From assembly GCA_026982315.1 (NCBI GenBank), contig JALSHI010000050.1:1-64000 (forward strand): a stretch of 64,000 nt of DNA, in the 5' to 3' direction. This document shows, one piece after another, positions 45,898-56,682 of the stretch. The stretch's first letter is position 1; each line of letters opens with the position of its first letter. The translations under genes and the position numbers were made by a program. Under the pieces are notes generated by a model. It did not search any database. It was not told where the DNA came from and saw nothing but the letters and a program-made list of their open reading frames with translations. This DNA is from Lysobacterales bacterium (GTDB lineage: Bacteria; Pseudomonadota; Gammaproteobacteria; Xanthomonadales; Marinicellaceae).

Positions 45898-46686
45898 TCA
45901 CCACTCACAACCGGGATAGGCCCGTTGCAAGAATTGCATTTCCGCCAGAATATAACCCAGATGTTCGCTGTGGTGGCCTTTTCTGCCACCGGTAGCCACC
46001 CAGCCGGATTCCGGTGGACGCAAACCGGCCTGTTTCAATGCTGGCAGCACCCCGGCTTGCCAGCGCGTCTGTATACTGGCCATATCCGGGGCAACACCCG
46101 CAGCCTGCAGGCGCTGTTGAAGGTCATCATTCTCGAACAGCTCGGGCGTATAGAACCACAAGTCGTCCACTGCCTGCTGCATACGCTGGTGGCTTTCGTC
46201 CGTGCCCTGACCCAAACGCCACAGCCAGTCGCCACTGTGCTGTTTGTGATAGCGGATTTCCTTGAGAACTTTGCGGGCAATATCCGCCAGTGGCTGCCAA
46301 CCGCTGCGTATCAACTCGCTGTAAAGGATTTCATCGTAAACGTCCATCAAATACTGGCGCACCATGGTGTGGGCAAAATCGCCATTGGGCTGCTCCACCA
46401 GCAGAACATTCCGGAAAGCGTCGGCATCTCGCAAATAAGCCAGTTCATCGGCGGTTTTTTGTTCAGTATCATCGCCTTGCGACCCTGCCAACTCCAACAG
46501 CAACTGGGCCTGCCCGATCAAATCCAGGGAAAGGTTTGTCAGGGCGATATCTTCTTCCAGAAACGGCCCGTGGCCGCACCACTCGCTCAAACGCTGGCCC
46601 AAAATCAGGGCGTTATCCCCCAATCGCAAGGCATATTCCCGATAGTCGGCCGGCAGCAGGCCGGTTGTTATGGCACTGGCGCTCAT
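45898..46686 (-). CDS. paaC: Phenylacetyl-CoA 1,2-epoxidase structural subunit PaaC
   Basis: A 262-residue ferritin-like protein that pairs with PaaA as a catalytically silent scaffold. Motifs YALRLGDNALILGQRLSEW and DIALTNLSLDLIGQAQLLL fit the family; a full di-iron ligand set is not expected. Its ATG overlaps the paaB stop (TGATG), which couples translation. Confidence 0.96.
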   Translation of the reverse strand: MSASAITTGLLPADYREYALRLGDNALILGQRLSEWCGHGPFLEEDIALTNLSLDLIGQAQLLLELAGSQGDDTEQKTADELAYLRDADAFRNVLLVEQPNGDFAHTMVRQYLMDVYDEILYSELIRSGWQPLADIARKVLKEIRYHKQHSGDWLWRLGQGTDESHQRMQQAVDDLWFYTPELFENDDLQQRLQAAGVAPDMASIQTRWQAGVLPALKQAGLRPPESGWVATGGRKGHHSEHLGYILAEMQFLQRAYPGCEW

Positions 46687-46967
46687 CAGATATTTTTCAC
46701 TTCATCGGGCAAGTCATAAAACGTCGGATGCCGGTAGATCTTGTCATCCGCCGGTTCAAACCAGACGGCCTTGTCTTGTGGATCAGAGGCATGAACGTGC
46801 CGGGATTCCACCACCCAGATACTCACGCCTTCCTTGCGCCGGGTATAAACATCACGGGCATTCTGCAAGGCCATTTTTTCATCAGCCGCATGCAGCGAGC
46901 CCACATGCTTGTGGTGCAAGCCATTCTGGTTGCGAATAAATACTTCCCATAAAGGCATGTCAGCCAT
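46686..46967 (-). CDS. paaB: Phenylacetyl-CoA 1,2-epoxidase subunit PaaB
   Basis: A 93-residue subunit needed for assembly of the PaaAC complex, starting MADMPLWEVFIRNQNGLHHKHVGS, close to known PaaB. ATG 46967 directly follows the paaA stop. The product has no catalytic residues of its own. The gene overlaps paaC by one base (TGATG). Confidence 0.96.
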   Translation of the reverse strand: MADMPLWEVFIRNQNGLHHKHVGSLHAADEKMALQNARDVYTRRKEGVSIWVVESRHVHASDPQDKAVWFEPADDKIYRHPTFYDLPDEVKNI

Positions 46968-46968
46968 T

Positions 46969-47952
46969 TTACGCCACCTCCCGGGGTTGCTTGTGTTTCT
47001 GCTGAGACGCCAGCACAGCTTCCCGCACCCAGGCGCCTGCTTCGTGAGCGCGGCGGCGCGCAGCCAGACGCTCACGATTGCAAGGCCCGTTACCGGCGAT
47101 CACCTGATAAAATTCGTCCCAGTTGATTTCACCATGATCCCAATGGCCGGTTTCCTCATTGAACTTTAATTCCGGGTCGGGAATCTCCAACCCCAGATAG
47201 TGCGCCTGGGGCACGGTGGCATCAATAAACTTCTGGCGCAAATCGTCATTGGAAAACCGCTTGATTTTCCATTTCATGGACTGGGCCGAATGAATGGAGT
47301 CCTTATCGCTGGGACCAAACATCATCAATGCCGGCCACCAGAACCGGTTCAGCGCGTCCTGGGCCATGCGCCTTTGTTCCGGGCTTCCATTGGCCATTTT
47401 CAGCATGACTTCATAGCCCTGACGCTGGTGGAAACTTTCTTCCTTGCAGACGCGAATCATGGCCCGCGAATAGGGTCCATAGGAACACCGGCACAAAGGC
47501 ACCTGGTTCATGATCGCAGCGCCGTCCACCAACCAGCCTATCGCACCCATGTCCGCCCAGGTCAAGGTTGGATAGTTGAATATGCTGGAGTATTTGGCTT
47601 TTCCCGACAGCAGATCGTCGATCATTTGCTCGCGGGAAACACCCAGGGTCTCAGCCGCGGAATACAGATACAAACCGTGACCGGCCTCATCCTGGATTTT
47701 GGCCAGCAAAATCAGCTTGCGCTTCAGTGTGGGCGCCCGCGTGACCCAGTTACCCTCGGGCAATTGCCCCACCACTTCGGAGTGAGCATGCTGGGAGATT
47801 TGCCGGATCAGTGTTTTCCGGTAGCCGCTGGGCATCCAGTCGCGCGGTTCAATTTTTTCTTCCGCGTCAATGCGTTTTTGAAAGGCCGCCAATTGCTCAG
47901 GCGAGTCATCAGTGTTTTTTTCTGCCGGGCCATTCAAGCCTTGTGAATACAT
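46969..47952 (-). CDS. paaA: Phenylacetyl-CoA 1,2-epoxidase catalytic subunit PaaA
   Basis: Di-iron oxygenase subunit that epoxidises the aromatic ring of phenylacetyl-CoA. The 327-residue product has the two ligand helices [13 protein letters not shown] (ExxH) and [13 protein letters not shown] (ExxH) plus further acidic ligands between. It starts [13 protein letters not shown] and has the family length. First gene of the ABCDE run and separated from paaJ by 69 bases. Confidence 0.97.
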
Positions 47953-48021
47953 ATGGTTGTCCCCGATTACCTAACAAATATCCCGTTATTTTTATTCTCC
48001 GCAGGCATCGCAGATGCTGGT

Positions 48022-49227
48022 TCAAGCGCTTTCCAGCAACATGGCCACACCCTGGCCCACGCCCACGCACAATGTCACTATGGCGAGTTTACCATTCTGG
48101 CGCTGGAGTTGTTTGACCGCCGTCAAAACCAGCCGCGCTCCGCTCATTCCCAGAGGGTGCCCCAAAGCAATGGCGCCGCCATTGGGGTTGACCCGCGGAT
48201 CATCATCAGCCAGTCCCAGTTGCCGCAAAACAGCCAACGACTGGGCGGCAAAGGCCTCATTCAGCTCAATCACATCGATATCATCCAGTCTGACCCCGGT
48301 TTTTTGCAACAGTTTCTGCACCGCCGGCACCGGCCCAATGCCCATGTAAGCCGGCTCCACACCCACGGCCACACTGGCCACAACCCGCGCCAAAGGCTTC
48401 AAACCATACTGGTCAATGGCTTCAGAGGAAGCCAGTAACAGCGCCGCTGCCCCATCGTTGACCCCCGAGGCATTACCCGCTGTCACCGTCCCGTCGCGGC
48501 GAAAAGGTGTGCGCAAACTGGCCAGTTTGTCCAGCGTGGTGTCCGGCCGCGGATGCTCATCGTATTCCACGACAATATCCCCGCCTTTGCGCCTGGAGAT
48601 AAAAACCGGCACGATTTCTTCTTCGAAAACGCCACGCGCCTGCGCCTGGGCGGCTTTGTGCTGGGACCGCAAGGCGAATTTGTCCTGGTCTTCCCGGCTG
48701 ATGGCGAATTTTTCGGCCACATTTTCGGCAGTTTCCGGCATGGAGTCCGTACCATATTCCGCTGCCAGCCTGGGGTTGATAAAACGCCAGCCAATGGTGG
48801 TGTCGTAAATTTCCGCCTGCCGTGACCAGGCTTGATCCGCCTTGGGCATCACCAGCGGCGCACGGGTCATGGATTCCACCCCACCGGCCAGAATGACATC
48901 GGCCTCGCCGGTGGCGATATGCCGTGCACCGGCGGCCACCGCATCCAACCCCGAAGCGCACAGGCGGTTAACCGTCACGCCCGGCACACTGGCGGGAAAA
49001 CCAGCCAGCAAAGCCGCCATGCGCGCCACATTGCGATTGTCCTCACCGGCCTGATTGGCGCAACCGGCAATCACGTCCTCTGCCGCTTCTGGCGGCAGCG
49101 AAGGATTATTTGTCATCACCGTGGATAGCACATGCGCCAACATATCGTCTGGCCGCACCGCCGCCAGTTCCCCACCAAAACGGCCTATGGGTGTTCTGAT
49201 ACCGTCACAAATGTATGCTTTTTTCAT
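48022..49227 (-). CDS. paaJ: 3-oxoadipyl-CoA / 3-oxo-5,6-dehydrosuberyl-CoA thiolase
   Basis: A 401-residue thiolase with the nucleophile cysteine in NRLCASGLDAVAAG, the histidine in GGAIALGHPLGMSG and the second cysteine in TLCVGVGQG. In the paa pathway it cleaves 3-oxo-5,6-dehydrosuberyl-CoA and later 3-oxoadipyl-CoA to succinyl-CoA and acetyl-CoA. The same enzyme type serves the beta-ketoadipate pathway (pcaF), but the context favours paaJ. Confidence 0.93.
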   Translation of the reverse strand: MKKAYICDGIRTPIGRFGGELAAVRPDDMLAHVLSTVMTNNPSLPPEAAEDVIAGCANQAGEDNRNVARMAALLAGFPASVPGVTVNRLCASGLDAVAAGARHIATGEADVILAGGVESMTRAPLVMPKADQAWSRQAEIYDTTIGWRFINPRLAAEYGTDSMPETAENVAEKFAISREDQDKFALRSQHKAAQAQARGVFEEEIVPVFISRRKGGDIVVEYDEHPRPDTTLDKLASLRTPFRRDGTVTAGNASGVNDGAAALLLASSEAIDQYGLKPLARVVASVAVGVEPAYMGIGPVPAVQKLLQKTGVRLDDIDVIELNEAFAAQSLAVLRQLGLADDDPRVNPNGGAIALGHPLGMSGARLVLTAVKQLQRQNGKLAIVTLCVGVGQGVAMLLESA

Positions 49228-49295
49228 TATTTCGCCTCGATCAGCATTGGGCTTTTACGATAAACGGGGCCGATTCGATTCCATCAGCAGCCCTG

Positions 49296-50843
49296 TCAGT
49301 CTTGCGGTTTTCCGGCAGTGCCCGCCTCTACTTGATGGCGTAGCCAGGGCGAGGGCCGATAGCGGTCATCCCCAAACCACTGCTGCAAGCCTTCCAGGGT
49401 CTGTAGTACATGACGTAAACCGATTTTTTCCCCCCAGGCCAGAAGACCCTCTGGGTAATTGACACCATAGCGCATGGCCAAGTCCACATCGGCTTCACTG
49501 CAGACCCCATTAAATACCGCATCGGCGGCTTCATTAATCAGCATTACCACTGTGCGCATGGCGATCAGGCCCGGCGCATCCGGCACCACCAGCACTTTCT
49601 TCCCCAATGCCTGAAAAAGCCCGATAACACTGTCCTGACTGGCTTTTGCACAGCGTTCGGAAAACGCCAGGGTGATGGTTTCGGCACTGGCGAAATCGTG
49701 CGCCAGGTCCACATGTACCAGGCATTTATAGCCATGTTCCCTGGCCCTGGCCGTCGCGCTTTGGCCATTGGCCAGCACCACCGCACAACCACCGGCCAGT
49801 AAATAACCCGAGCCTTTTGACTCCATCAGGGAAATGCATCGCCGGGCGCGGATCAAACCCCGCAAGGGTTCGCCCAGGCCCATATTACCGCGAATGGTGA
49901 CGGTGCCTTTTTGCACGCAACCGGGCGCATAAGGCACCTCAGCGGGCGTACTTTCAGTATAGTGGTAAAAACCCCTGCCCGTTTTTCTGCCAAGCAAACC
50001 GGCCGCCACCATTTCCTGTTGAATCAGGGAGGGCCGGTAACGCGGATCATTGAAAAAGGCGGAAAAAACGCTGCGGCTAACAGCAAAGTTCACGTCAATG
50101 CCAATCAGGTCCATTAACTGGAAAGGCCCCATGCGAAAGCCAGCGCTTTCCCGCATCACCGCATCAATCACCGCTGGTGTTGACAGTTGTTCCTGGAGCA
50201 TTTTCAGCGGCTCGCCATAAAACGGGCGCGCCACCCGATTGACAATAAACCCGGGCGTGGAACGCGCGCGCACAGGCACTTTCCCCCAGGCCCGGCACAC
50301 ATCTTCTGCCAGCCGCAACCATGACTCGTCACTCCGCATCCCGGCAATCACCTCAACCAGTTTCATCACCGGTGCGGGATTAAAAAAGTGCATGCCTATG
50401 AGTCGCGAAGGCTGTTTCAAACCCGCCGCAATCGCAGTAATCGACAGGGAGGAGGTATTACTGGCCAGCATCGTATCTGGCAAACAAATGGACTCCAGTT
50501 GTTGGAAAATTGTCTGTTTAATGGCCAGGTCCTCAACCACTGCTTCGATCACTAGGCTGGCATCAGCCAGTTCATCCAGGGTTTCGACCAGGCTAATGGC
50601 ATTGAGTATCTCCTGCCGGGCATGGGCGCTGATTCGTCCCTTGTCCACGCGCTTCTGCAAACGGGCCGCCAGGGCATCTTTTGCCTTCATGGCTGCTTGC
50701 GGCTGGGCATCATGGACAATCACTTTGTGCCCATGGGCGGCCGCCACTTCGGCGATGCCGATACCCATGGTGCCAGCGCCAACCACGCCCACCACAGGAA
50801 AGCGCTGGATGACATCTTTCCGGTTTTCTGCCTGCCGCGTCAT
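49296..50843 (-). CDS. paaH: 3-hydroxyadipyl-CoA dehydrogenase PaaH
   Basis: A 515-residue 3-hydroxyacyl-CoA dehydrogenase with the NAD-binding loop VGAGTMGIGIAEVAAAHGHKV, two 3HCDH C-terminal domains (FIVNRVARPFYGEP and a second near YPEGLLAWGEKIGL) and an intervening extra segment. It oxidises 3-hydroxyadipyl-CoA. It follows paaG directly: the paaH start and paaG stop are one base apart. The C-terminal repeat is usual for PaaH. Confidence 0.94.
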   Translation of the reverse strand: MTRQAENRKDVIQRFPVVGVVGAGTMGIGIAEVAAAHGHKVIVHDAQPQAAMKAKDALAARLQKRVDKGRISAHARQEILNAISLVETLDELADASLVIEAVVEDLAIKQTIFQQLESICLPDTMLASNTSSLSITAIAAGLKQPSRLIGMHFFNPAPVMKLVEVIAGMRSDESWLRLAEDVCRAWGKVPVRARSTPGFIVNRVARPFYGEPLKMLQEQLSTPAVIDAVMRESAGFRMGPFQLMDLIGIDVNFAVSRSVFSAFFNDPRYRPSLIQQEMVAAGLLGRKTGRGFYHYTESTPAEVPYAPGCVQKGTVTIRGNMGLGEPLRGLIRARRCISLMESKGSGYLLAGGCAVVLANGQSATARAREHGYKCLVHVDLAHDFASAETITLAFSERCAKASQDSVIGLFQALGKKVLVVPDAPGLIAMRTVVMLINEAADAVFNGVCSEADVDLAMRYGVNYPEGLLAWGEKIGLRHVLQTLEGLQQWFGDDRYRPSPWLRHQVEAGTAGKPQD

Positions 50844-51629
50844 TCAGCGCCCCTCAAAAACAGGGGGGCGTTTTTCACTGAAAGCTGTCACGCCTTCGGC
50901 AAAATCCAGGGTCAACCCGGCAATGCGCTGATAATCACGCTCCAGATCCAGTTGCTCATCCAGGCTGTTGTTCCAGCTTTTCTGCATGGCGTCCTTGATT
51001 AGCCCCAGGGCGATGGTTGGGCGATTGGCGACATTGTCCACCAGTTCAGTCAGTGCCTGGTCAAAATCCGCATCATCCACACAGCGGTATATCATGCCCC
51101 ATTGTTCAGCTGTTTCCGCATCCACGGGAATACCCAGCATGGTAATGGCGCGAGCCCGGGCGCTACCAATCAAACGCGGCAAATGCCAGGTCATGCCACT
51201 GTCGGGAATCAGACCGATATTGCTGAAAGCCTGAATAAAACGGGCCGACTTTTTCGCCAGCACCAGATCGCAGTTCAGGGCAATACCGGCACCGGCACCC
51301 GCGGCCACGCCATTGACCGCGGCAATCACGGGAATTTTGAGCGCATGCAAAAGGCGCAGGCTTTTGTTATAGCCGACTTCCAGCGTTTCTCCCAAATCAG
51401 GCTTTTTCCCCTTTTCCGGTTGGCGCTCACCCAAATCCTGCCCGGCGCAAAAACCCCTGCCTGCACCGGCGATAACCATCGCCCGCAGGAAATCATTGTT
51501 AGCCACGGTTTCCAGCGCCTGCTGAAACTCGCGGTGCATGGTTTTGTTAAAGGCATTAAGCCGTTCAGGACGATTTAACGTAATGGTGGCAACGGCACCG
51601 GATATGTTCAGTTCTATGGTCTCAAACAT
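50844..51629 (-). CDS. paaG: 2-(1,2-epoxy-1,2-dihydrophenyl)acetyl-CoA isomerase PaaG
   Basis: A 261-residue crotonase-fold enzyme that isomerises the ring epoxide to the oxepin. Motifs ITLNRPERLNAFN, the oxyanion-hole stretch GAGRGFCAGQDLGER, and AAGAGAGIALNCDLV fit the PaaG type. First gene of the minus-strand paaGHJABCDE unit and 65 bases from the divergent paaY start, so both share a regulatory region. Confidence 0.93.
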   Translation of the reverse strand: MFETIELNISGAVATITLNRPERLNAFNKTMHREFQQALETVANNDFLRAMVIAGAGRGFCAGQDLGERQPEKGKKPDLGETLEVGYNKSLRLLHALKIPVIAAVNGVAAGAGAGIALNCDLVLAKKSARFIQAFSNIGLIPDSGMTWHLPRLIGSARARAITMLGIPVDAETAEQWGMIYRCVDDADFDQALTELVDNVANRPTIALGLIKDAMQKSWNNSLDEQLDLERDYQRIAGLTLDFAEGVTAFSEKRPPVFEGR

Positions 51630-52384: not shown

Positions 52385-53671
52385 TTACTCAAAGCCATGG
52401 GCAAATATCAGATCTCCTCGCTGGATACGGAATACAGACCCGCCCAAAGAGATCACGTAAACATTGCCGGCTTCGTCCTCGCCAAAAGAGCCCAGACTAA
52501 ATTGCAAGGCACTCTCCCCATGCACCCATTCCTGGCGTGACCAGACACCCCCGTTTTCACTGGCATACCAGATGCGTCCTGAACAGACATCTCCATAAAA
52601 ATATAAGCCATTTATGGCTGTGATGGGCCCCCGATACCGGTAACCACCGGTAATGGCGCAATTGCCACCGGCATGCGTCTCTGTCAAAATCGGCGCAGTC
52701 AATGTCACCCCCGGCAGGCAGCGACCACTGTCGTAGACCTGGTCGCCTTCCATGCAGCTCCAGCCATAATGTTCGCCACCACTACTGGAAGCTGGCTGGA
52801 AACTGATTTCTTCCACAGTATTTTGCCCCACATCGCCAATAAAAATATCCCCGGTTTGGCGGTCAAAACTCCAGCGCCAGGGATTACGCAAGCCCCAGGC
52901 CCACACTTCCGAGCAACGCGAGTCGTTGCTGGCCTCAAAGGGATTATCGCCTGGAATGCCATAATTGACGCCCTCGGCACAGGTACCATCGGTATTGACC
53001 CCGGGGTTATCCACATCGATACGCAGCATTTTGCCTAACAAGGCGCGTGAGTCCGGGTTGCCGCCAAAGTTGCCATCCGGCGCGCAACTGCCACTGTTAT
53101 CCAAGTTAACCGGATCCAGGGTTTGCGCCCGATCACACGGGTCTCCAAAACTACCGCCATCACCCATGCCAATGTATAAATAGCCGTCCGGGCCAAACAG
53201 AATATTGCCGCCATTATGGTTGCTGAAATCCTGGTCTACAGTCAGCACAATACTGGCTGAGGCCGGGTCGGCCTGATTGGCGTCACCCGCGGAAACCTGG
53301 TAACGGGCCACCACCGTGTCGCCCTGGGCGTTGGTGTAGTTGACGTAGAAGTAACCGTTGTTGGCATAGTCGGGATGAAAAGCCAAGCCCAGCAACCCCC
53401 GTTCACCACAACAATTAACAATGCTGGAAATATCCAGAAACGGCGTCGGTAACATCTGAGCGCCATCCCAGATGCGGATAACACCAGCCTGCTCCACCAC
53501 AAACAAGCGGCCACTGCCATCGCCGGCATGGCGCGCGGCCAGTGGGCTGGATAAACCTGAAGCGACAGGCTGCAACCATAAATCAGCCGGCAGTTGCGCC
53601 CGGACCGGCACAAAGAAAAACAAAAGTAACGCGAAAACCACAGAAAAACGTTTCAACCATTCAGATAACAT
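52385..53671 (-). CDS. PQQ-dependent sugar dehydrogenase-like protein with IFxHGFE C-terminus
   Basis: A 428-residue exported beta-propeller of the soluble glucose dehydrogenase / HHIP-like group. A signal peptide (1-25, ending VRA) is followed by repeats such as GLLGLAFHPDYANNGYFYVNY, QDFSNHNGGNILFGPDGYLYIGMGDGG and EVWAWGLRNPWRWSFD, which include the catalytic-site histidine and PQQ-binding residues. Many cysteines (NCCGE, GSCAPD, GTCAEG) suggest disulfides. The C-terminal nine residues are DLIFAHGFE, a motif recalled from secreted proteins of Xanthomonadales-like bacteria and possibly used for sorting. Substrate unknown. Confidence 0.87.
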   Translation of the reverse strand: MLSEWLKRFSVVFALLLFFFVPVRAQLPADLWLQPVASGLSSPLAARHAGDGSGRLFVVEQAGVIRIWDGAQMLPTPFLDISSIVNCCGERGLLGLAFHPDYANNGYFYVNYTNAQGDTVVARYQVSAGDANQADPASASIVLTVDQDFSNHNGGNILFGPDGYLYIGMGDGGSFGDPCDRAQTLDPVNLDNSGSCAPDGNFGGNPDSRALLGKMLRIDVDNPGVNTDGTCAEGVNYGIPGDNPFEASNDSRCSEVWAWGLRNPWRWSFDRQTGDIFIGDVGQNTVEEISFQPASSSGGEHYGWSCMEGDQVYDSGRCLPGVTLTAPILTETHAGGNCAITGGYRYRGPITAINGLYFYGDVCSGRIWYASENGGVWSRQEWVHGESALQFSLGSFGEDEAGNVYVISLGGSVFRIQRGDLIFAHGFE

Positions 53672-54738: not shown

Positions 54739-56682
54739 GTGAAACTGAAACACATACTCTGCATCACCGGCACCATCAGCGCCACCTTTATGCTCACCGG
54801 CCTTATGGCTGCCGGTCTGTCCATTAATGGCTCCAACGCCGTGCCGACCACTGCCAATATTGATTATGACCTGGCAAACAGCCGCATTGACGTTTCGGTG
54901 GCCGAACCTTTTTTCTGCACCAATTTCGGCAGTTCCTCCCTGCCTATCGGTTTACGTATTTTCGATCCCAACAACGAGTCTCCCGCTGTTTTGACCGGGT
55001 TGCAAGACATTCAGTATGACCCCAGTAGCAACAGCCTGAATATTATTGGCGACACCACACTGGTGTGCATGGATGCCGCCGGCAGCAGTGGCAATGGCAG
55101 CAGTGATATTATTTTTACCCATGGATTTGACCCCGCCGGCGGCGCCCCCAACTCGGATATCAGCGTTAACTATACGGCCAGCAACAACACCATAGCAGCC
55201 GGGTTCAACTTTGTGTATCACATCGTCGCCACCAATAACGGCACCAATCTGGCGCATTTCAACCTCACCGACTTCTTCCCCAAAACGGGCAATTTCGATC
55301 CAGCCCTGGGCAGTGGCACCTGGAGCTGTGCCGTGGTCACTGGCGCATCCGCCAATGCCACCTGTGGCAATAATGTCTCCGGCACGGACGTGGTGGATAT
55401 CGTTGACGCCGTGCTGGATGCCGGGGACTCCATTGACATTACCGTGACCCGGCTGGTGATCAATAACTCCGCCGCGCTTCCGCAAACCCTGACACTGACA
55501 GCCGCGGCATTGGTGGATCCGCAGTACACCGACAGCCTGTTAAGCAACAACGTCGATAATTTCAGCCTCAATGTGGTGAATAACCAACCACCCACCATCA
55601 CGGCCATACCAGACCAAAGTATTCTGGAAGACACAGCAACTGCCGCTTTGCCATTCAGCATCAGTGATGTCGAAACAAGCGTTACTTGTCTGAACAATGT
55701 CACGGCCAGCAGTTCTGATCCGGCCATGATTCCTGCCACCGGTATCGCCATTGCCGACACCGGAAATGGCACTGACTGCACAGTCACAGTCACTCCGGCT
55801 GCCAATGCCAATGGCTCAGCCAGCGTGACACTGACTGTCACCGATGGCACAACGGCGGTGAACAGCGTTTTTACTGTCAATATCACCGCTGTCAATGACA
55901 AGCCTGTCTTCAGCGTCAATCCCACCGTTATCGTCGACGGCCCCTATGCCCCGGCATCCGGCAATATCGTCGTTAAAGGGATCGACTCACCGAACAGCAC
56001 TGTCACCACATTCGCCACGGTCAATACCTTTGGCGCTGCTGACGAGGACAATAACCAGCAGGTTCTGGCCTACACTGTGACCGTGGTTGCCGACCCTGAC
56101 GGTATTATCGCCCGCGACGGTTTTACCAACGAGCCCATCGTCAGCATGGCCACTGATGGCTCATTCACTTATGCCCTGGCAGGCAACTTTGGCACCGCCA
56201 CCCTGCAAGCGGTTTTACAGGACAATGGTGGCACCGCCAACGGTGGCAACGACACCTCCGATCCGGTCACCTTTACCATTGAGGTGCCTGCGCCCAATCC
56301 GGCCTTGACTCTGGCTAAAACCGTATATGGTTCCTGGGACGCCGGTGCCGGATGCGCCACCGCCGGAGAGAACGTAACCAATGTGGCCGGTGCCGTCATC
56401 ACCTACTGCTTTACGGTGACCAACACCGGTGATGTGGCCCTCGATATCACCTCCTTGAACGATATTGACCTGAATCTCAGCATGAACGACCTGACCCTGC
56501 TGGGCAACCCCAGTTTACCTTTAGCACCGGGAGCCAGCTCCACCTGGTATTTTGAAACCAACATCAATGGCACTTTGACCAACCACGCCACTGTCAGCGG
56601 CACACCGGTAGACGCCAATGGAACGCCGCTGGGGTTTCCCGATGCCACCGCCAATGACACAGCCAACGTCACACAACTGTAA
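54739..56682 (+). CDS. Exported multidomain protein with DUF11/cadherin-like repeats and IFxHGF motif
   Basis: A 647-residue protein with a signal peptide (about 1-25), a first module (30-115), the short motif DIIFTHGFD (about 126-134), a DUF11-type domain (about 140-285; VNYTASNNTIAAGFNFVYHIVATNNGT), a cadherin-like or tandem repeat region (285-510; ITAIPDQSILEDTATA, NITAVNDKPVF) and a second DUF11-type domain (525-640; TYCFTVTNTGDVALDITSL). Such proteins are surface or secreted. GTG 54739 has a weak ribosome site (AGGAATCAACAC). Anchoring is unknown. Followed by a terminator. Confidence 0.8.
   Translation: MKLKHILCITGTISATFMLTGLMAAGLSINGSNAVPTTANIDYDLANSRIDVSVAEPFFCTNFGSSSLPIGLRIFDPNNESPAVLTGLQDIQYDPSSNSLNIIGDTTLVCMDAAGSSGNGSSDIIFTHGFDPAGGAPNSDISVNYTASNNTIAAGFNFVYHIVATNNGTNLAHFNLTDFFPKTGNFDPALGSGTWSCAVVTGASANATCGNNVSGTDVVDIVDAVLDAGDSIDITVTRLVINNSAALPQTLTLTAAALVDPQYTDSLLSNNVDNFSLNVVNNQPPTITAIPDQSILEDTATAALPFSISDVETSVTCLNNVTASSSDPAMIPATGIAIADTGNGTDCTVTVTPAANANGSASVTLTVTDGTTAVNSVFTVNITAVNDKPVFSVNPTVIVDGPYAPASGNIVVKGIDSPNSTVTTFATVNTFGAADEDNNQQVLAYTVTVVADPDGIIARDGFTNEPIVSMATDGSFTYALAGNFGTATLQAVLQDNGGTANGGNDTSDPVTFTIEVPAPNPALTLAKTVYGSWDAGAGCATAGENVTNVAGAVITYCFTVTNTGDVALDITSLNDIDLNLSMNDLTLLGNPSLPLAPGASSTWYFETNINGTLTNHATVSGTPVDANGTPLGFPDATANDTANVTQL

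What the first reader, a model, noticed from the sequence alone, without database searches (positions are those of the whole stretch)
52385..52411. C-terminal DLIFAHGFE motif on an exported quinoprotein
The dehydrogenase ends with DLIFAHGFE. I recall IFxxGFE-type ends on exported proteins of Xanthomonadales-like bacteria. A shared short end on unrelated exported proteins would act like a sorting or anchoring tag, similar in idea to LPXTG, PEP-CTERM or type IX signals, but here there is no membrane helix or basic tail.
Basis: partly seen in the sequence, partly recalled or inferred. Interest (0 to 1): 0.5.

Follow-up and report, generated by a model that had tools for sequence, protein, structure and literature searches.

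The report
Short tail tag on exported proteins
Dozens of unrelated exported proteins in one group of bacteria end in the same nine-letter tag, and genomes that carry the tag almost always carry one particular outer-membrane export machine, so the tag may be a shipping label that this machine reads.

Summary
Real and far from chance. The window's quinoprotein ends DLIFAHGFE-stop. The 2.24-Mb own genome has 17 tag-pattern hits, 0 for the reversed control; 13 end 0-1 residues before a stop, on unrelated exported proteins. Relatives carry up to 96 hits. Consensus: D-[LIV]-I-F-x-[DNH]-G-F-E; one group uses F-x-D-R-F-E. No helix or basic tail follows. Copies also occur in tandem, between domains and behind signal peptides. 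Many carriers belong to families that elsewhere bear GlyGly-CTERM, MYXO-CTERM or T9SS ends. The tag tracks a canonical type II secretion system (gspC with PDZ, gspD, gspE, gspF beside ftsEX): of 176 order genomes at least 95% complete, 59 of 62 with it are tagged and 4 of 114 without it (after rechecking discordant genomes; uncorrected 58 of 64 and 4 of 112). A same-family genome without any GspD lacks the tag. Five apparent exceptions were guessed in advance to carry a variant tag, and did. Best reading: a linear export address for this system, whose known signals are described as structural. The link is correlation; family f8 contradicts it, and no unbiased search for partner genes was run.

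The parts
52385..53671 (-). Exported glucose/sorbosone (PQQ-type) dehydrogenase, 428 aa, carrying the tag
   Evidence: ORF; PF07995 E 4e-29; PDB relatives include soluble quinoprotein glucose dehydrogenase and hedgehog-interacting protein; N-terminal MLSEWLKRFSVVFALLLFFFVPVRAQ is signal-peptide-like by inspection
52388..52414 (-). C-terminal tag DLIFAHGFE, directly before the TAA stop (52385-52387)
   Evidence: aligned with five relatives whose ends are DLIFEDGFE/DLIFADGFE/DLIFANGFE after the last propeller strand
54739..56682 (+). Second exported protein with an internal tag; DUF11/DUF7507 and cadherin-like domains follow the tag
   Evidence: ORF; Pfam; GTG start, signal-peptide-like N-terminus by inspection
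55105..55131 (+). Internal tag DIIFTHGFD in a Gly/Ser-rich linker (SSGNGSSDIIFTHGFDPAGG)

Best explanation
D-[LIV]-I-F-x-[DNH]-G-F-E is a short linear address carried by proteins that enter the periplasm through Sec (or Tat), fold there, and are then picked out for passage through the outer membrane by the canonical PDZ-bearing type II secretion system of these bacteria (gspC-gspD-gspE-gspF beside ftsEX). It usually hangs as a flexible tail from the C-terminus but is also found as a tandem pair, in a linker, or just behind the signal peptide. Shown here: the tag, its placement, its carriers, the absence of a helix, and co-inheritance with this T2SS including a variant form. Inferred: that the T2SS reads it.
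For: Co-inheritance: after choosing 21 tag-rich and 18 tag-poor genomes, all 21 tag-rich ones have a GspD match (G129 only fragments) and same-family G001 has none. A GspD tree puts the second GspD of all 20 tag-rich genomes fetched in one clade (clade support 0.98 in the enlarged tree). Five tag-poor genomes also sit in that clade; a variant tag F-x-D-R-F-E was written down as the thing to check before the search found it: 94, 45, 40, 15 and 13 hits against 3, 2, 0, 2 and 1 in the control, while 13 genomes without this T2SS gave 0-4 hits against 0-5. Order-wide, 250 genomes: >=95% complete, uncorrected 58 tagged and 6 untagged with GspC-B, 4 tagged and 108 untagged without; corrected 59/3/4/110. 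Within families: f2 2/0/0/51, f12 5/0/0/47; label shuffling within families never reached the observed concordance (190 of 200; maximum 184 in 5000 shuffles). Carriers: 11 of 80 match choice-of-anchor Q and others match rhombosortase-, myxosortase- and T9SS-dependent M36 or ExeM/NucH models. Both Sec-type and twin-arginine (L003, L119) carriers occur. Position tolerance fits an address rather than a processing site. GspC-B has T2SSC and PDZ domains.
Against: Family f8 breaks the rule: G088 (25 hits, control 2), G082, G100 and G116 (10-11 hits) have only the other GspD clade, and G104 has this T2SS but 2 hits. G109 and G184 (f9) have it with 4 and 7 hits. Papers seen state that T2SS substrates share no linear signal (PMC12369372, PMC7949064, passages). 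Copies with 1-8 extra residues, internal copies and N-terminal copies speak against a classical PDZ grip on a free carboxylate. Only four T2SS genes lie at the locus; pseudopilin genes were not located.
Confidence: 0.58

Rival explanations
1. The tag acts after export: it holds already secreted proteins on the cell surface by binding an outer-membrane receptor or polymer. Carriers use this T2SS for export, so receptor, tag and T2SS are co-inherited, but the T2SS does not read the tag.
For: Carrier families are those with alternative anchors elsewhere (choice-of-anchor Q, J, O, X; M36). A non-covalent binding motif would tolerate N-terminal, linker and tandem copies.
Against: No receptor candidate found; clustering of neighbouring genes gave no recurrent partner. 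The tag vanishes in every f2 and f12 genome that lacks this T2SS although the other GspD remains in nearly all of those examined.
Confidence: 0.2
2. Another, unknown envelope machine (chaperone, protease or transporter) reads the tag; its gene is lost and kept together with the T2SS by ecology or chance.
For: Only T2SS genes were profiled; f8 has tag-bearing genomes without the T2SS.
Against: Same loss pattern in f1, f2 and f12, and the variant-tag genomes tested all carry this T2SS.
Confidence: 0.13
3. Tripartite C-terminal sorting signal of the sortase kind (GlyGly-CTERM, PEP-CTERM, MYXO-CTERM, LPXTG) that has lost its helix.
For: Occupies the same place on the same protein families.
Against: 0 of 83 carriers have a transmembrane-like stretch in the last 70 aa and basic residues are rare there (0.30 per last nine); the tag also sits behind signal peptides and between domains.
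Confidence: 0.03
4. Not a signal: a structural end-cap, leftover of domain fusion, or selfish DNA insert that happens to encode the end.
For: Internal copies at domain borders (L011, L014).
Against: Carriers are unrelated (13-31% identity to the first sequence) and codons vary freely while residues do not (ATT/ATC/ATA 111/64/31, GGT/GGC/GGA/GGG 75/57/36/35 in 218 tails). Presence follows genome, not protein family.
Confidence: 0.04

Closest known systems
GlyGly-CTERM / rhombosortase (PMC3237569, passages read)
   Same: Many-to-one C-terminal end on exported hydrolases with signal peptides; overlapping carrier families (M36, S8, ExeM-like); partner suggested by phylogenetic profile; in Vibrio coupled to the T2SS
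   Different: No Gly-rich motif, no helix, no basic cluster; tag may be internal or N-terminal; partner candidate is a T2SS, not a rhomboid protease
Type IX secretion C-terminal domains
   Same: C-terminal feature on Sec-exported proteins for passage of the outer membrane
   Different: Nine residues instead of a folded domain of roughly 80 (size recalled); the bacteria are Gammaproteobacteria; T9SS genes not searched
T2SS recognition through GspC PDZ (EpsC/VesB, OutC/PelI; PMC12369372 and PMC7949064, passages read)
   Same: Canonical GspC with PDZ; carriers are Sec- or Tat-exported proteins
   Different: Described signals are loops or an Ig fold on single substrates; here one linear motif is shared by dozens of unrelated proteins
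PEP-CTERM / exosortase, MYXO-CTERM / myxosortase, LPXTG / sortase
   Same: Genome-wide tag on unrelated exported proteins
   Different: All are tripartite with a helix and basic tail; no tail model of these matched among the families shown

Membership tests
Tripartite CTERM sorting signals (GlyGly, PEP, MYXO, LPXTG) | Signature motif followed by transmembrane helix | tested here: not met
   0 of 83 tagged ORFs with a KD>1.6 19-residue stretch in the last 70 aa
Tripartite CTERM sorting signals (GlyGly, PEP, MYXO, LPXTG) | Basic cluster at the extreme C-terminus | tested here: not met
   mean 0.30 K/R in the last nine residues
Tripartite CTERM sorting signals (GlyGly, PEP, MYXO, LPXTG) | Match to a curated CTERM model | tested here: not met
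   Window proteins: none at E<=10; 80 carriers: no CTERM tail model among the 25 of 34 families shown at E<=1e-5, though models of anchor-dependent proteins match
Tripartite CTERM sorting signals (GlyGly, PEP, MYXO, LPXTG) | Cognate membrane peptidase co-distributed | not tested
T2SS substrate | N-terminal Sec or Tat signal peptide | tested here: met
   75 of 83 tagged against 179 of 454 neighbour ORFs by a crude predictor; two twin-arginine N-termini
T2SS substrate | T2SS present in the genome | tested here: met
   all 21 tag-rich genomes chosen have a GspD match; order-wide 59 of 63 tagged genomes >=95% complete have the canonical one, and the other four have another GspD
T2SS substrate | Export abolished without the T2SS | not testable with these tools
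   needs a mutant
PDZ C-terminal ligand | Motif at the free C-terminus | tested here: inconclusive
   Mostly yes (13 of 17, 23 of 35, 10 of 15, 13 of 15 within 0-3 residues) but 1-8 extra residues in the variant group and N-terminal or internal copies
PF07995 glucose/sorbosone dehydrogenase (window protein) | Score over the Pfam gathering cut-off | tested here: met
   102.4 bits against 25

The most novel reading that the evidence does not exclude
The order uses a genuine, transferable, position-tolerant linear address for type II secretion: a nine-residue peptide, C-terminal, N-terminal, in a linker or in tandem, suffices to send a folded periplasmic protein through the canonical T2SS, with lineage dialects (H-G, N/D-G, D-R) that co-evolve with GspC/GspD. 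This would give the T2SS the readable signal it is said to lack and make its cargo predictable from sequence.
Probability: 0.45. Interest if true: 0.95.

Novelty: categorically new. Interest (0 to 1): 0.85.

Why it matters
How a T2SS tells cargo from resident periplasmic proteins is an old open question; papers I read passages of say there is no linear signal (PMC12369372, PMC7949064). A short tag on dozens of cargo candidates per genome makes the question directly testable by grafting nine residues, gives a list of predicted exoproteins for a poorly studied order, and would offer an export tag for biotechnology.

Tried and rejected
Common neighbour gene: clustering 454 neighbour ORFs of the fetched loci gave no recurrent partner, largest clusters 5 loci. 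Class-wide spread: a strict pattern with stop codon found almost nothing (2 of 369 genomes) but is insensitive (G043 falls from 24 to 1 hit), so it was repeated loosely: 364 genomes outside the order gave 0-13 hits, mostly at control level; G339 and G560 (one family, 10 hits each, control 0) were not followed up. Literature: six tag strings hit 18 papers on unrelated subjects, judged from the listing to be chance letter runs; searches showed no description of this tag in their listings. DNA-level element: rejected on codon variation.

Full report
WHAT IS IN THE WINDOW. The ORF 52385-53671 (-) encodes 428 aa and ends ...VFRIQRGDLIFAHGFE-stop. The nine residues are at 52388-52414; the finding's interval covers the stop and eight of them. 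The protein is a PF07995 glucose/sorbosone dehydrogenase. Five relatives from other genomes end their last propeller strand and then carry DLIFEDGFE, DLIFADGFE or DLIFANGFE, so the tag is appended to the domain. A second exported protein, 54739-56682 (+), carries DIIFTHGFD at 55105-55131 in a Gly/Ser-rich linker before DUF11/DUF7507-like domains. The pattern is expected 0.04 times in the window by shuffling and is found twice.

IT IS A GENOME-WIDE TAG. The own genome (2,244,227 bases) has 17 hits and 0 in the reversed control: 13 end 0-1 residues before a stop, 2 are internal in exported proteins, 2 are spurious frames. The 33 genomes of the family, the own one included, have 2 to 96 hits, with 0 to 11 in the control. 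For three further genomes the listed hits were read in context: G002 35 hits, 23 within 0-3 residues of the stop, 5 first copies of tandem pairs, 2 at 4-12 residues, 5 other; G037 15 hits, 10 within 0-3, 1 at four residues, 4 other; G035 15 distinct of 16 listed, 13 within 0-3, 2 other. These counts include at least one chance frame (L370, 12 aa).

POSITION IS FLEXIBLE. Besides tandem copies and linkers, five proteins carry the tag just behind what looks like a signal peptide (L065, L377, L384, L386, L389). Two of them go on as AARFLTQA(S/T)FGP, which I recall as the start of DUF1800 (not scanned). In 218 tails collected from all loci the consensus is D(82%)-[LVI]-I(94%)-F-x-[D43 N41 H11]-G(93%)-F-E(93%), 163 of 218 exactly at the stop. 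Many of these loci were fetched with patterns that demand part of this, so the percentages are not an unbiased logo; the free codon choice at synonymous sites is informative and argues for selection on the peptide.

CARRIERS ARE UNRELATED EXPORTED PROTEINS. Of 83 complete tagged ORFs of 150 aa or more, 75 have a signal-peptide-like start by a crude rule, against 179 of 454 neighbouring ORFs; several of the eight misses are wrong or missing starts by eye. Lipobox 2 of 83; twin-arginine 2 (L003 and L119). Eighty of the 83 (three longest dropped) were aligned; the others share 13-31% identity with the first. NCBIfam at E<=1e-5: choice-of-anchor Q in 11 of 80, choice-of-anchor J, O and X once each, rhombosortase-dependent and myxosortase-dependent M36 three each, T9SS-dependent M36 one, ExeM/NucH three, rhombotarget A two (these models overlap and curated cut-offs were not applied). 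Pfam: FG-GAP, GSDH, reprolysins, S8, endonuclease I, beta-helix and others. None has a helix near its end (0 of 83). The tag thus stands where relatives elsewhere have a sorting tail.

WHICH MACHINE. Over 250 genomes of the order, tag counts are patchy: families f2 and f12 are nearly empty except for a few genera with 22-69 hits. From these I chose 21 rich and 18 poor genomes and searched GspD: all rich genomes have a match (G129 only fragments), G001 (the tag-poor member of the window's own family, 2 hits) has none, and G033 has only weak, PilQ-like matches. In a tree of 60 GspD, the second GspD of the 20 rich genomes fetched forms one clade with five poor ones (G038, G040, G065, G071, G113); the other GspD of rich and poor genomes forms a second clade, with one outlier in G053. 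The first is canonical: its best solved relatives are full-length T2SS secretins (376 bits), while the second is divergent (168 bits). The canonical genes lie as gspC-gspD-gspE-gspF next to ftsE-ftsX (ftsE/ftsX by inspection). GspC has T2SSC and PDZ domains. A GspC profile hits all 25 such loci and none of the 35 other GspD loci fetched.

A PREDICTION THAT HELD. For the five poor genomes in the canonical clade I noted, before testing, that they might use F-x-D-R-F-E (the variant was a recollection). The variant pattern gave 94, 45, 40, 15 and 13 hits against 3, 2, 0, 2 and 1 in the control (G038 mainly with G or S instead of R). Of 24 such places read in context outside the own genome, 19 lie 0-8 residues before a stop. 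Thirteen genomes without canonical GspD gave 0-4 hits against 0-5.

ORDER-WIDE TEST. GspC profile against variant-pattern counts, 250 genomes; tagged = at least 10 hits and three times the control. Uncorrected, >=95% complete: with GspC 58 tagged and 6 not; without 4 tagged and 108 not. GspD was then checked in 20 genomes, mostly chosen because they disagreed; G229, G246, G163 and G179 fall outside the canonical clade, and the window's genus, whose H-type tag this pattern misses, was counted as tagged. Corrected: 59/3/4/110 of 176; all 250: 100/7/17/126. By family, tagged and untagged with the T2SS, tagged and untagged without: f2 2/0/0/51, f12 5/0/0/47, f1 (>=95%) 19/0/0/1, f8 2/2/8/27. Shuffling tags within families (>=90% complete) gave a mean of 173 and a maximum of 184 concordant genomes in 5000 runs, against 190 of 200 observed.

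WHAT SPEAKS AGAINST. Family f8 has tagged genomes without this T2SS (G088, 25 hits) and one with it and without tags (G104). f9 genomes G109 and G184 have few hits. Genomes are related, so the test is not of independent events, although losses appear in at least f1, f2 and f12. No other gene was profiled.

MECHANISM. Most likely carriers cross the inner membrane by Sec or Tat, fold, and display the tag on a flexible tail that the T2SS recognises. GspC PDZ is an attractive reader: deletion of the PDZ of EpsC stops secretion of VesB in V. cholerae, and PelI loop 3 is reported to act through GspC and GspD (PMC12369372 and PMC7949064, passages read). But tags behind signal peptides, in linkers or followed by 1-8 residues do not fit a simple carboxylate-binding groove. 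Both papers say that T2SS substrates lack a common linear signal, which is why this would be surprising. The profile logic is that by which rhombosortase was found (104 of 108 genomes; PMC3237569, passages).

NOVELTY. Not a member of the tripartite CTERM families (tested, not met). I found no description of the tag in the searches, which cover open-licence PubMed Central papers only. Protein-sorting tags as such are a known idea; a helix-free, position-tolerant linear tag tied to a T2SS is not one I could match to anything.

Noticed in passing
L065, L377, L384, L386, L389: The same tag placed directly behind signal peptides, two of them in front of a DUF1800-like start (family name recalled), while DUF1501 protein L003 carries it at the C-terminus.
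   Followed up: partly
L105, L120, L137, L185; G002 loci L348, L365, L366, L374, L375: Tandem tag pairs 27-33 bases apart in G002; 5 pairs among its 35 hits.
   Followed up: partly
G001 (same family): A 4.7-Mb, 100% complete genome of the window's family with no GspD match at all and only 2 tag-pattern hits.
   Followed up: partly
L091, L120, L148, L152, L179, L181: Tag-bearing loci in several genomes also hold a serine/threonine kinase-like gene or an ECF sigma-like gene (by inspection).
   Followed up: no
G339 and G560 (family f102, outside the order): Ten tag-pattern hits each against 0 in the control; possibly a distant occurrence of the tag.
   Followed up: no
window 45898-51629: Genes that look like a phenylacetate degradation operon (paa-type, by inspection) lie beside the tagged dehydrogenase.
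   Followed up: no
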